Positions 50,784 to 58,166 of a DNA stretch of 59,104 nucleotides are shown one piece after another. Each line of letters begins with the position of its first letter. The stretch's first letter is position 1. Source of the DNA: Candidatus Endomicrobiellum cryptotermitis (GTDB lineage Bacteria; Elusimicrobiota; Endomicrobiia; Endomicrobiales; Endomicrobiaceae); NCBI GenBank assembly GCA_031257835.1, contig JAIRNY010000019.1, positions 1 through 59,104 on the forward strand. The letters run 5' to 3'. Below the pieces are notes generated by a model, which saw only the letters and a program-made list of their open reading frames with translations, had not been told where the DNA came from and made no database searches. Both the position numbers and the translations under genes were made by a program.

Positions 50784-51485
50784 ATGCAAAACAAAACAAT
50801 ATTAATAACAGGTATATCTAGAGGTATAGGAAAACATTTAGCAATCGCATTTTCTGAAGCTGGATGGAGCATATGTGGTTGTTATAAAAACAATAAACCA
50901 GATTATACATTAAAAAATTCTAAGTTTATACAAGCAAATGTTTCCGTTTATGAGGACGTAAAAAAGTTGGTTACAACTACTATTGCAGAGCATGGACGCA
51001 TTGATTGTCTCATAAACAATGCTGGCATTTCTGATCCATCAACAATATTAAAAATGGCAAACGACAAATGGTCTTCTGTTATAAATACTAATCTAACAGG
51101 TGTATTTTATACAACAAAAGAAATTTTAAAAGTCATGAGCAAACGTAAGAGTGGGTCTATAATTAATATAGCTTCTATACGTGCATTCACAGCTTTTATA
51201 GGAAGTGCAAATTATTCTGCTTCTAAAGCAGGCCTTATTGCATTTACTAAAAATCTCTCTATAGAAGCTGGACATTTTGGGATAACGGCAAATGCTGTCT
51301 TGCCAGGGTTTCACTTTACAAGTATGGGCAACAATGCTAGCGATTCTTATATAAAAAAAATAAAAGAAGAAAGTGTTCTAAACACAACAACAGACATTAA
51401 AGAGTTCACTGATTTTATTATTTTTTTATCAGGACTTAAAACTGTTTCAGGACAGGTATTCAACTTTGATTCAAGATTAATATAA
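50784..51485 (+). CDS. FabG-like short-chain dehydrogenase/reductase
   Basis: A 233-residue SDR: NAD(P)-binding TGISRGIG (residues 9-16), NNAG (78-81), catalytic Ser131, Tyr144 and Lys148 in YSASK. It most resembles 3-oxoacyl-ACP reductases. GTGAGG precedes the ATG. The ketosynthase gene begins seven bases after its stop, so it probably reduces that enzyme's 3-oxoacyl product. It could instead be a dedicated reductase of a secondary pathway. Confidence 0.85.
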   Translation: MQNKTILITGISRGIGKHLAIAFSEAGWSICGCYKNNKPDYTLKNSKFIQANVSVYEDVKKLVTTTIAEHGRIDCLINNAGISDPSTILKMANDKWSSVINTNLTGVFYTTKEILKVMSKRKSGSIINIASIRAFTAFIGSANYSASKAGLIAFTKNLSIEAGHFGITANAVLPGFHFTSMGNNASDSYIKKIKEESVLNTTTDIKEFTDFIIFLSGLKTVSGQVFNFDSRLI

Positions 51486-51491
51486 AATGAA

Positions 51492-52598
51492 ATGAATAGT
51501 AACATTAATGTAGCAATTACAGGTATAGGTATAGTTTCCCCCTTAGGCATAGGCAAAGAAGAAAATTGGAAACAATTAATAAATTGTAATCATAAAATTT
51601 ACTATAGTAAAAAGTTTGATGCATATATTGCTAACGTAGGCAATTTAAATGTATGTGACACTAAAAAACAATACCAAATGGCAAAGTTAGCTATTTGCCA
51701 AGCATTACAAGATGCAAGCATTGCAAACTCTTTTTCTAATAAAAAGGTAGGATTTTGTCTAGGTGAAAGTAAAATAAACCTTTTTACTAACCCTTTTAAA
51801 TATTCTCTATTAGAAAAACTAAATCAAACTTTTTATTTTAACGGACCACTATCTTGTGTGTCTGCAGCGTGTGCTACAGGAATTTTAACAATTATACAAG
51901 GGTGTAACCTTATAAAAGATGGGATATACGATGCTGTTGTCTGTGGTTGTAGCGAAACTTCTATACATCCACTTTATATAGCAGGATTTAAAAAGATGGG
52001 CGTTTTAACAAAACATTTACCTAGCCCTTTTGACAAAGACAGAGATGGTTTTGCAATAGGAGAGGGAGCTGGTTTTATCGTACTTGAAAGTTTAGAAAAG
52101 GCTATAAAAAATAATGCTAAAATTTATGCTGAAATAGTAAATTTTTCAAATGGTATATACTCTGACAATACTTTATCTATAAGTTCCCATTCAAAAATGA
52201 CACAAATAATCAAAAAAACCGTGTCAAACCATACACCTGACTATATACATATGCATGGGACTGCAACTAAATTAAACGATTACAATGAAAGTAAAGCTGT
52301 TTTTGAATCTTTTAATAATGCAAGCAAAATTTCTTTAAGTTCCACAAAAGCTGCAACTGGGCACATGCTTAGCGTTTCTGCAATAGCTGGAACAATATTT
52401 TCTTTACTTGCTATGGCAAACAATATTGTCCCTCCAACTTTAAATTTTACACAAACAGACATAAATTTAAATTTGGATTACACGCCAAATAATCCAAAAA
52501 CAAGAACTATCAACTCTAGTCTTGTTTTGTCTTTTGGGTTTGGCGGACAATCTTGTGCTTTATTTTTAAAAAAACATAAAAGGGAACAATATGTTTAA
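51492..52598 (+). CDS. Beta-ketoacyl-ACP synthase (KAS I/II type)
   Basis: A 368-residue ketosynthase, some 40 residues shorter than FabF, with losses mainly in the N-terminal half. The active residues are intact: Cys127 in CVSAACATG, His255 in HMHGTAT, Lys286 and His291 in TKAATGHM. It condenses malonyl-ACP with an acyl primer. It lies between an SDR and an alpha-oxoamine synthase, overlapping the latter by eight bases, so its chain probably feeds that enzyme. Confidence 0.87.
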   Translation: MNSNINVAITGIGIVSPLGIGKEENWKQLINCNHKIYYSKKFDAYIANVGNLNVCDTKKQYQMAKLAICQALQDASIANSFSNKKVGFCLGESKINLFTNPFKYSLLEKLNQTFYFNGPLSCVSAACATGILTIIQGCNLIKDGIYDAVVCGCSETSIHPLYIAGFKKMGVLTKHLPSPFDKDRDGFAIGEGAGFIVLESLEKAIKNNAKIYAEIVNFSNGIYSDNTLSISSHSKMTQIIKKTVSNHTPDYIHMHGTATKLNDYNESKAVFESFNNASKISLSSTKAATGHMLSVSAIAGTIFSLLAMANNIVPPTLNFTQTDINLNLDYTPNNPKTRTINSSLVLSFGFGGQSCALFLKKHKREQYV

Positions 52599-53769
52599 TA
52601 AACTCTTATCACAACAATTATCAGAAATGGAAAATAGTGGACTTAAAAGATTTTTAAGAAATGTAGATTGTTCCCCTACATCCAAAATAAAACTTCAAGG
52701 AAAAGATTTTATAAATTTTTCATCTAATAATTATTTAGATTTGGCTGGGGATAAAGAAATAGAAAAAAAAGCCATAAATATTATTAAAATTTATGGGCTG
52801 TCTGCCACATCTTCTAGACTTGTGTCTGGCAATATTTCAGTACATAAAGGATTGGAAGAAAAGTTGGCCTTATTTAAAAACAAAAAAGCATGTCTTGTAT
52901 ATCCGAGCGGATACCAAACAAATTTAGGTGTTATAAGTGCGTTGATATCTTACCAAAAAGATGCATGTATAATAATGGACAAACTAAACCACGCTTCAAT
53001 TTGGGACGGGGCAAAACTTTCAGGCAGTAGAATTTTTGTTTACAAACATTGTGATATGAACTCTCTTGAAAAGGTCCTTAAAAGAGCAGAAAATTATAAC
53101 TTAAAACTAGCAATAACAGAATCTGTTTTTTCAATGGATGGGGACATAACGCCAATGAAAGATTTTATAAATCTTTGCCAAAAATATAAAGCTGTAAGCA
53201 TGGTAGACGAAGCTCATTCTACAGGCGTTTTTGGTAATCAAGGGAAAGGCCTTGCTGACACTTTTGGCATTTCTGACAAAATAGATATAATTATAGGTAC
53301 TCTTTCAAAAGCTTTTGCTTTACAGGGCGGCTTTGTGTGTGGCTCTAAAACATTAATAGACTTTTTAATAAACAAATGCAGATCTTTTATTTATACAACT
53401 GCAATTTCTCCGTTTCTTGCAGCTATTGCTATAGAAACTTTAGAAATTATTAAAAAAAGCGACAATAGAAGAGAAACGCTTTACGACAATGCAAAAATAT
53501 TAAAAAGCAAATTAATAGATTTAGGGTTTAATATTGGAAAATCTGAATCTCAAATAATTCCAATTATAACAGAAACTGTTGAAAACACTGAAAAATTGTC
53601 CTTACATCTTTTAAAAAACAATATCTACACTCCTTCAATAAAGCCGCCAACTGTACCTAACAGTAAAGCAAGGATAAGAATATCTTTAACAGCTGGCCAT
53701 AGCATTAAAGATATAGATCTTTTAGTAAACGCGTTAAAATTATATAAACACAATTCTACTCGACTTTAA
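52591..53769 (+). CDS. Alpha-oxoamine synthase (BioF / KBL family)
   Basis: A 392-residue PLP enzyme condensing an acyl thioester with an amino acid and releasing CO2. The PLP lysine is Lys240 in GTLSKAF, DEAHSTGVFG is at 206-215 and the substrate-binding NNYLDLAG at 46-53. The best guess is 8-amino-7-oxononanoate synthase (biotin), but no bioA, bioD or bioB is near. The coupling to a ketosynthase and reductase would also suit a lipid or other amino-ketone product. Overlaps the ketosynthase by eight bases. Confidence 0.85.
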   Translation: MFNKLLSQQLSEMENSGLKRFLRNVDCSPTSKIKLQGKDFINFSSNNYLDLAGDKEIEKKAINIIKIYGLSATSSRLVSGNISVHKGLEEKLALFKNKKACLVYPSGYQTNLGVISALISYQKDACIIMDKLNHASIWDGAKLSGSRIFVYKHCDMNSLEKVLKRAENYNLKLAITESVFSMDGDITPMKDFINLCQKYKAVSMVDEAHSTGVFGNQGKGLADTFGISDKIDIIIGTLSKAFALQGGFVCGSKTLIDFLINKCRSFIYTTAISPFLAAIAIETLEIIKKSDNRRETLYDNAKILKSKLIDLGFNIGKSESQIIPIITETVENTEKLSLHLLKNNIYTPSIKPPTVPNSKARIRISLTAGHSIKDIDLLVNALKLYKHNSTRL

Positions 53770-54554
53770 CCTTTTGGGTTCCCCTGATTAATAAAACATA
53801 AGAGCAAATACAAACAATATATAAATATCAAGCAAAAAACGTTAACAAAACAGTTCAGACGACAATTTTAATATACTCTCCTTAACAAAAACAAAAAACC
53901 TTCTTTACCACACATTTATATGTAAATATAAGGTTGGAGCTTTCCTCATAACCGTATATTTTTATGTGTAAATCCATCGTGTTCTCTTAAACCATTGCAA
54001 GTTTGGTACTAACAAGGAAACTAAACTTCCTAACTTAATCTCTAAAATAAAAAAATAAAGTGTAATATATATACACTTATGTTATGTATTTACTACAGTG
54101 ACGATAACTTATTTAAAAATCAACAACTGTTAATACACAGCTCTATTTTAGTCGGTCTAAAATATTACTATATCCTTACATATTTTAATATTTTACATTA
54201 AGTTGATACCACCCCAGTCTTTTAGTACAATTGAGGCATTAATACACACAAAAAATAATAGAAGTAATGGTACATGGGTACGCATGGTACGGGAAAGAGT
54301 TTGTATATAATCCGTTTTCAACAATGTAGGGTTGGCAATGAGAGAGCAAAAAGATGGCATTATTGAACGCAAACTTTATGCAGGAATTGCCCCTAAATTA
54401 TAGAGTACAATTTAAGCAAGCTAGGTAAAAGTTTAAAGCCAACAATAAAATTGGGGAACGCAATATAAACAAAATCAAAAGTGATATTTCGTACCAGTTA
54501 TGATAATTTTAACAATAAACTTATCTAACTTTTTAAAATATAATTTTTATATTT
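53770..54554. other. 785-base stretch without an intact gene
   Basis: No long open frame. An imperfect inverted repeat lies at about 53910-53969 (outer arms ACACAT and ATGTGT, inner AGGTT and AACCG). A short palindromic AAGTGTA/TACACTT is near 54059-54080. At 54250-54410 the sequence is less AT-rich and reads plus-strand fragments such as MREQKDGIIERKLYAGIAPK (from an ATG at 54338), interrupted by stops; I cannot assign them. This looks like debris of a deleted gene between two convergent units. Confidence 0.5.
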
Positions 54555-56024
54555 TTAATTTTCATTTGATGTAAGTGTTAAAAATTGTTTGTTCAACCCA
54601 AAAACAGCAATAACCCAAACTAAAACTATTACAATAAACACACTTGCTACTACTCCTGCAAGTGACAGAAGAGACGATCCTACAAATATCATATTGAGCA
54701 ACACATATAAAATTAAAGATCCACCAGATTTACCAGCACGAGTGCCAATAACATCAACAACAGCTTTACCTTTAGATTTTAATTCATCATCCAGAGGTAT
54801 ATAGCTCATTTCTTTAGTCGGATCAAAAAGTGAATACTTTACGCCTTTAGCTAGGAGGTTTTGAATTAGTCCAACCCAGACTATAACATCTAAAACTGTA
54901 AGCCCAATGCTTGCAACCGAAGTTGAAAAAAAATCTTTAAAAATAATAAAACCAAAGAAAATAATCCCGGTTAAGGCAATCATAACTGGAGTCATTAAGG
55001 CACCTGTACGCCAAGAACATATACGTAATATATTCGTACCTATTAGCATACATATAATTGTACAAATTCCTGTAAGAAGTTGAAGATTGCCCATAAACGC
55101 ACCATATGCAGCTTTTGTTGGATACAGTAAGCTTACTTGCCCTTTCCAGACAACTTCTACCAAGTTTATGCTTACCCCATAGCAAATTACTAAAAGCGCT
55201 ATATAACCTAAATATTTTGATTTGATAATATATTTAAAACTATCAACTAAAGGCAATTTTTCTTTCGTTTTAGATTTTTTTATTTCATCAGGATTGTAAT
55301 AAAGAGGATCTTTTAAAATATAGTTATTTAAACGATAATATAAAGCAACCACAATAAGCCCAGCTACTATTGTAGCCATCATTAAATATGGCAATGCGTT
55401 CCACTGATTACTACTAGAATGTGCTTCACTACTGTTTAGTACCTTTAAAATAAGACCAGTCACTATTAATGCTACATTTGCAATAAAACCAAACATTGCA
55501 TAAAAACGTCTTGATTCTTTAATGGAAGTTACATCATTAGCAAAACGCCAAAACATTAACCCGATCATTGTGCTACCCCACAACTCTGCCATTACATAAA
55601 ATGAAGAAAACACCCAAGAACCAATAGGTTTCAATAATCCGCTTACCAAAGGGATAGAAACACTTGAAACATCAAACTGTAGATAATGATGAAAAGGATA
55701 TAGAACTGTCATAAATAAAGCAAAATACGCCACAAAGGAAAGCGTTATAATATAAAAAACTGTATCTTTTTTAAAAACATTTACTAACTTAGAATAAATC
55801 AACATAAGTAACATAGCAGAAGGTAGTACAAACCATAACTTTATTGTAGGAATTACTTCTGCTCCAAGAGATGTAACTACTAAAGAATCCTTTATAGACC
55901 TTAACATACTATAGTTAAATAAAATACATAAAAACATAAACGCCATAGGTAAAAATTTTTTTAACTCAAAATTATGTATTGGCCACAACACGGCTTTCCA
56001 ACCTGTAATTTGCTGATTATTCAT
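54555..56024 (-). CDS. tlc: ATP/ADP translocase (NTT/TLC family)
   Basis: A 489-residue protein of about twelve membrane helices with the family's N-terminal block: WPIHNFELKKFLPMAFMF, then LRSIKDSLVVTSLGAEVIP and IKLWFVLPSA. The KEMSYIPLD region near residue 410 is also present. Known relatives import host ATP in exchange for ADP in Rickettsiales, Chlamydiae and a few other intracellular bacteria, or carry other nucleotides. Its substrate here is inferred. It is a single gene, with GAGGAG 14 bases before the ATG. A perfect 10-base inverted repeat lies about 100 bases upstream. Lateral acquisition is likely. Confidence 0.95.
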   Translation of the reverse strand: MNNQQITGWKAVLWPIHNFELKKFLPMAFMFLCILFNYSMLRSIKDSLVVTSLGAEVIPTIKLWFVLPSAMLLMLIYSKLVNVFKKDTVFYIITLSFVAYFALFMTVLYPFHHYLQFDVSSVSIPLVSGLLKPIGSWVFSSFYVMAELWGSTMIGLMFWRFANDVTSIKESRRFYAMFGFIANVALIVTGLILKVLNSSEAHSSSNQWNALPYLMMATIVAGLIVVALYYRLNNYILKDPLYYNPDEIKKSKTKEKLPLVDSFKYIIKSKYLGYIALLVICYGVSINLVEVVWKGQVSLLYPTKAAYGAFMGNLQLLTGICTIICMLIGTNILRICSWRTGALMTPVMIALTGIIFFGFIIFKDFFSTSVASIGLTVLDVIVWVGLIQNLLAKGVKYSLFDPTKEMSYIPLDDELKSKGKAVVDVIGTRAGKSGGSLILYVLLNMIFVGSSLLSLAGVVASVFIVIVLVWVIAVFGLNKQFLTLTSNEN

Positions 56025-56120
56025 AATATTTCTTTTTCTCCTCTATTTTCATTTAGATAAATCTAACTTTGTTTGCATATATACATATTGTACATTTACT
56101 CTTACCAAAATAAAGCTTCC

Positions 56121-56150
56121 TTTTGTAAAAAATGTGTGAATTTTACAAAA
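56121..56150. promoter_or_regulatory. Inverted repeat upstream of the ATP/ADP translocase gene
   Basis: TTTTGTAAAA (56121-56130) and TTTTACAAAA (56141-56150) are perfect arms around a 10-base centre. No T-run follows on the minus strand, so an operator is more likely than a terminator. It lies between the guaB stop and the translocase start. Confidence 0.4.
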
Positions 56151-56236: not shown

Positions 56237-57745
<1,509 letters not shown>

Positions 57746-57821: not shown

Positions 57822-57968
57822 ACGGAGTTGGGAAACTTTACACATGAAAATTACTCTAAATTATTAGAGCTTCTCACACTTATACCTGCCAGAGAACGCT
57901 TAATAGCTGATGGTGAATTAAACAATAATCTTAACAATCTGTCAAATGTATATACTATTAAAAGATAA
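57822..57968 (+). pseudogene. Unassigned secreted-protein remnant
   Basis: A short frame reads YTELGNFTHENYSKLLELL and then PARERLIADGELNNNLNNLS before a stop near 57968. It has no start codon or ribosome-binding site. The Asn/Leu-rich pattern could be the debris of a surface or adhesin-type gene, but I recognise no family. A plus-strand terminator follows at 58167-58197. Confidence 0.35.
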
Positions 57969-58166
57969 TATTTGTTGGTTCTTCTCTTTTATCAATAGTA
58001 GCTGTTGTAGCTAGCATGTTTATTTTGATAGTTTTGGTTTGAATATTGCCTTACACAATCGTCATCAAATGCTACCATTAATATTGTTAAAAAACAAGCA
58101 AACATCAAGAAGTATAGTTAATTATAAATTTTTAGAAAAGTTTTAATTTAGCCATAAAGAAAGAAA

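What the first reader, a model, noticed from the sequence alone, without database searches (positions are those of the whole stretch)
54555..56024. ATP/ADP translocase points to energy dependence on a host cell
The gene has the full NTT/TLC N-terminal block and length. Such carriers are best known from obligate intracellular bacteria. It sits alone between a gene desert and guaB, consistent with lateral gain. Together with the SemiSWEET carrier it implies direct use of host cytoplasm.
Basis: partly seen in the sequence, partly recalled or inferred. Interest (0 to 1): 0.62.

Follow-up and report, generated by a model that had tools for sequence, protein, structure and literature searches.

The report
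Horizontally acquired ATP/ADP carrier in endosymbiont
The gene is an intact ATP/ADP carrier that a bacterium living inside termite-gut protists acquired from alphaproteobacterial endosymbionts, so it can probably take ATP from its host; this was already published in 2024, and the genome still keeps its own fermentation genes, so it is not shown to depend on host energy.

Summary
Confirmed and already known. ORF 54555..56024(-) encodes an intact 489-aa NTT/TLC carrier (PF03219 E=4e-170; TIGR00769 521.8 bits, cut-off 387). The window belongs to an Endomicrobiellum-type genome (Elusimicrobiota), endosymbionts of termite-gut flagellates. Mies et al. 2024 (PMC11257099) already reported this NTT for "Endomicrobiellum lineage D", its alphaproteobacterial origin and its conserved critical residues. 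Independently here: lineage-D copies are 87-92% identical; the next relatives outside the genus are NTTs of Holosporaceae/Alphaproteobacteria from termite and ruminant guts (57-63%); none of 35 genomes of other genera in the family has a copy; all four residues critical in plant NTT1 are kept; dN/dS is 0.13-0.30. In all six lineage-D genomes the gene lies directly 3' of guaB, where free-living-type relatives have a PF03547 transporter: one insertion at one site. What does not hold: 'energy dependence' is overstated (enolase, pyruvate kinase, acetate kinase retained), the SemiSWEET is ancestral, and the 'gene desert' is 785 bp. Small additions not found in that paper's text: the shared insertion site, a lineage-specific dyad and promoter, a decayed second NTT fragment upstream of guaB, and a recent duplication in one relative.

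The parts
54555..56024 (-). ntt/tlc: ATP/ADP (NTT family) carrier, 489 aa, intact
   Evidence: charged residues K62, E147, E290, K432 = AtNTT1 K155, E245, E385, K527; dN/dS 0.13-0.30 in lineage D
56087..56114 (-). probable own promoter of ntt: -35-like TTTATT and -10-like TACAAT with a 16-base spacer (TATAAT in most relatives)
   Evidence: alignment of guaB-ntt spacers of six lineage-D genomes; consensus resemblance only
56123..56148 (-). dyad TTGTAAAATTCACACATTTTTTACAA between guaB and ntt; before ntt in five of the six lineage-D genomes, diverged in G018
   Evidence: found before ntt in G000, G014, G023, G028, G029; no pattern match in G020, G027, G054, G015, G058; G018's pattern match is elsewhere
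56237..57715 (-). guaB, IMP dehydrogenase; resident gene that marks the insertion site
   Evidence: TIGR01302 630 bits; synteny across the family
57962..58041 (+). decayed 3' fragment of a second ntt copy, opposite orientation, upstream of guaB
   Evidence: 61/80 bases identical, E=5e-12; same remnant in G014
53770..54554 (.).

Best explanation
An ATP/ADP antiporter of the NTT (TLC) family in the inner membrane of a termite-flagellate endosymbiont of the genus Endomicrobiellum (lineage D). It exchanges host-cell ATP for bacterial ADP (plus phosphate), supplementing the bacterium's own fermentation. The gene was gained once by the lineage-D ancestor from an alphaproteobacterial endosymbiont related to termite/ruminant Holosporaceae, at the 3' side of guaB, and has been kept under purifying selection with what is probably its own promoter. 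Shown here: family, intactness, conserved critical residues, alphaproteobacterial kinship, shared insertion site, selection. Inferred: ATP/ADP specificity, direction of net transport, and its weight in the energy budget.
For: Family and full length. K155/E245/E385/K527 equivalents all present; these matter for transport in AtNTT1, and K527 for ATP binding (PMC4256464; PMC3306366). Closest homologs outside the genus are Holosporaceae/Alphaproteobacteria MAGs from termites and a goat cecum; an 18-row clade with them has 100/100 support. None of 35 genomes of other genera of the family carries it, and outside the genus the phylum shows only weak matches under 50 bits. guaB-ntt adjacency in all six lineage-D genomes against guaB-PF03547, or a gene-free stretch, in relatives. 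dN/dS 0.13-0.30. Published with the same conclusion: PMC11257099.
Against: The four charged residues are kept in every typical NTT aligned here, so they do not fix the substrate; PMC4256464 states that substrates cannot be predicted from sequence. No biochemical data for this clade. Fermentation enzymes are kept, so the need for imported ATP is unproven.
Confidence: 0.86

Rival explanations
1. The carrier mainly imports nucleotides as building blocks (net NTP uptake or proton symport, like some chlamydial and rickettsial NTTs) and not energy.
For: Critical residues do not discriminate substrate (PMC4256464). The gene sits 3' of guaB in lineage D and 3' of pyrG (CTP synthase) in G020/G027, both nucleotide genes.
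Against: guaB and gmk are intact in the window, so guanine nucleotides can still be made from IMP. Mies et al. place the clade close to characterised Rickettsiales ATP/ADP antiporters. Adjacency may be chance.
Confidence: 0.12
2. The organism is an obligate energy parasite that depends on host ATP (the first reader's reading; it is compatible with the carrier being an ATP/ADP antiporter).
For: NTT kept under purifying selection; reduced genome; termite Clostridia with NTT and disrupted glycolysis are described as putative energy parasites (PMC10579323).
Against: Enolase, pyruvate kinase and acetate kinase are all present; most Endomicrobiellum-type genomes, several of them smaller, have no NTT. 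The authors leave the question open.
Confidence: 0.08
3. Contamination: the gene comes from a Holosporaceae contig binned into this assembly.
For: Fragmented assembly (28 contigs); best hits outside the genus are alphaproteobacterial.
Against: It is physically linked on a 59 kb contig to guaB, and the same junction occurs in five other assemblies; guaB is 94-96% identical to the closest ones. The protein is only 57-63% identical to Holosporaceae copies.
Confidence: 0.01

Closest known systems
NTT of Endomicrobiellum lineage D (Mies et al. 2024, PMC11257099)
   Same: Same clade of endosymbionts, same NTT family, alphaproteobacterial origin, conserved critical residues.
   Different: Nothing essential. 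The shared guaB insertion site, the promoter dyad and the decayed second copy were not found in the text I searched; its supplements were not read.
NTTs of Holosporaceae / orders UBA3830 and RUG11792 (termite and ruminant gut MAGs)
   Same: Closest relatives outside the genus, 57-63% identity, same residues.
   Different: Different phylum. In my tree they are sister to, not surrounding, the Endomicrobiellum copies.
Solved NTTs 9j3n ('ADP,ATP carrier protein 1') and 9j3j (chloroplastic ADP,ATP carrier protein 1, taken as Arabidopsis NTT1)
   Same: Full-length homologs with solved structures; all four critical residues shared.
   Different: Separate, distant branch of the tree.
NTTs of termite-gut Acutalibacteraceae (PMC10579323)
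   Same: Another protist endosymbiont group with a laterally gained ATP/ADP translocase.
   Different: Those bacteria lost net ATP-generating glycolysis; this genome keeps eno, pyk and ackA.

Membership tests
NTT/TLC carrier family (PF03219, TIGR00769) | Full-length match above curated cut-offs | tested here: met
   567 bits against 21; 521.8 against 387.2
NTT/TLC carrier family (PF03219, TIGR00769) | Four charged residues (At K155, E245, E385, K527) | tested here: met
   K62, E147, E290, K432
ATP/ADP antiporter (functional subclass) | ATP/ADP counter-exchange measured | not testable with these tools
   needs uptake assay; sequence does not fix substrate
ATP/ADP antiporter (functional subclass) | Phylogenetic grouping with characterised ATP/ADP carriers and apart from non-ATP NTTs | tested here: inconclusive
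   no named non-ATP references could be fetched; the published tree puts the clade close to Rickettsiales ATP/ADP antiporters
Endomicrobiellum lineage D NTT | Clade of Endomicrobiellum NTTs apart from other acquisitions in the genus | tested here: met
   5-row clade 100/99; same guaB junction. That this clade is the paper's lineage D is inferred from the distribution and description, since its tables were not read
Energy parasite | Loss of net ATP-generating pathways | tested here: not met
   eno, ackA, pyk present; other steps not tested

The most novel reading that the evidence does not exclude
The two NTT groups in Endomicrobiellum (lineage D and the G020/G027 type) are sisters and may stem from one acquisition in the genus that later moved between loci or between endosymbiont lineages, rather than from two donors as published. 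The decayed second copy beside guaB and the duplication in G029 fit a gene that is often copied and moved.
Probability: 0.15. Interest if true: 0.3.

Novelty: already known. Interest (0 to 1): 0.2.

Why it matters
It is a clear case of an endosymbiont gaining direct access to host ATP by gene transfer from a co-resident endosymbiont of another phylum, while its own fermentation is still in place. That makes it useful for asking whether an NTT comes before or after loss of energy metabolism. The main point is published.

Tried and rejected
Contamination: rejected by the same guaB-ntt junction in six assemblies. SemiSWEET as a sign of cytoplasm use: rejected, ancestral in the family. A ntt remnant in the 785 bp 'desert': none found. 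The dyad before ntt as a regulon site: not supported; at most one pattern match per genome, five of six before ntt. Critical residues as a substrate test: rejected, invariant in all typical NTTs aligned. The distant NTT-like ORF of G016 has no match in solved structures. Named references for Rickettsia Tlc1-5 could not be fetched; the plasmid collection gave one Rickettsiales NTT only.

Full report
Observation. The ORF at 54555..56024 on the minus strand is real, intact and exactly placed. It is a full-length NTT/TLC carrier by Pfam, NCBIfam and solved homologs, and the only copy in its 1.05 Mb, 87%-complete assembly.

Which organism. The closest homologs, at 87-92% protein identity, lie in MAGs named Endomicrobium sp. 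and Candidatus Endomicrobiellum roisinitermitis, cubanum and incisitermitis.

Lateral origin. In the class, 9 of 96 genomes match PF03219, all in the window's genus (7 with a full-length copy, G029 with two pieces cut by contig ends, G016 with a distant homolog); none of the 35 genomes of other genera of the family does. Across 341 genomes of the phylum, matches outside the genus stay under 50 bits. The next homologs are Holosporaceae and other Alphaproteobacteria from termite guts and a goat cecum (57-63% identity). A tree of 48 NTTs places the window with the other lineage-D copies (100/99), this group with the NTTs of G020 and G027 (98/94), and all of them with the Holosporaceae group (100/100). 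My tree has the two Endomicrobiellum groups as sisters; holding either with the Holosporaceae group instead is at the edge of rejection (p-AU 0.050 and 0.048; the groups were named after the tree was seen). The published tree, which also has RUG11792 and Acutalibacteraceae copies, reads them as separate gains. I cannot settle this.

Insertion site. In the window and in G014, G018, G023, G028 and G029 the gene lies directly 3' of guaB on the same strand. In large-genome relatives (G055, G058, G059), and in G015 and G019, guaB is followed by a PF03547 membrane transport gene; in G054 and G033 about 550 bp without an ORF follows guaB instead, which I read as its decayed remains (inference). G018 keeps the ancestral block on the other side of guaB. 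One insertion in the lineage-D ancestor explains this. In G020 and G027 the NTT lies elsewhere, 3' of pyrG.

Function. The four charged residues that matter in Arabidopsis NTT1 are present as K62, E147, E290 and K432 (roles in PMC4256464, and PMC3306366). They are invariant in all typical NTTs aligned, so they support a working carrier, not a specific substrate. dN/dS among lineage-D genes is 0.13-0.30, so the gene is under purifying selection. The guaB-ntt spacer holds a promoter-like pair of boxes and a dyad, conserved in five of the six genomes and diverged in G018; ntt therefore probably has its own promoter.

Energy dependence. The assembly keeps enolase, acetate kinase and pyruvate kinase. 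The NTT is better read as a supplement than as proof of dependence; Mies et al. also leave this open. The SemiSWEET in the window is no support, because relatives occur in 59 of 77 genomes of the family, including a closed 1.59 Mb genome of another genus.

Prior knowledge. Mies et al. 2024 (PMC11257099) report an NTT in Endomicrobiellum lineage D, embedded among homologs of the alphaproteobacterial order UBA3830, related to Rickettsiales ATP/ADP antiporters, with conserved critical residues, and independent gains in other lineages. Termite-protist Clostridia with an ATP/ADP translocase are also known (PMC10579323), and NTTs are not restricted to intracellular bacteria (PMC5381601). The finding is correct in its main point and already known. 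Supplements of these papers were not read, so the small additions (shared insertion site, dyad, second-copy remnant, duplication in G029) may be partly reported there.

Noticed in passing
window 57962-58041 (+); L102:7752-7838 (-): Decayed 3' fragment of a second ntt copy upstream of guaB, inverted to the intact gene, 76% identical over 80 bases; shared with G014.
   Followed up: partly
L097:1-240 and L098:9129-9376 (genome G029): Two different 5' ends of ntt, 97% identical over 249 bases, on two contigs that break at the same base: probably a recent duplication in G029.
   Followed up: partly
L094:13114-14427 (-), genome G016: A 437-aa distant NTT-like protein (57.5 bits to TLC; K/E/D/K at the four critical positions) in a 0.7 Mb Endomicrobiellum-type genome in which no enolase was found; at those positions it resembles the divergent copies of G104 (Holosporales MAG).
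   Followed up: partly
L095, L096 (genomes G020, G027): Another NTT group in the genus, located 3' of pyrG next to an amidotransferase/phosphoribosyltransferase-type gene and a carB-like gene.
   Followed up: partly
window 56123-56148: Dyad TTGTAAAATTCACACATTTTTTACAA before ntt, in five lineage-D genomes, one site per genome; role unknown.
   Followed up: partly
window 50784-53769 (+): A fabG-like, fabF-like and bioF gene run next to valS; bioF is on other contigs in the other lineage-D genomes, so the bioF side of ntt was probably rearranged in this genome.
   Followed up: no
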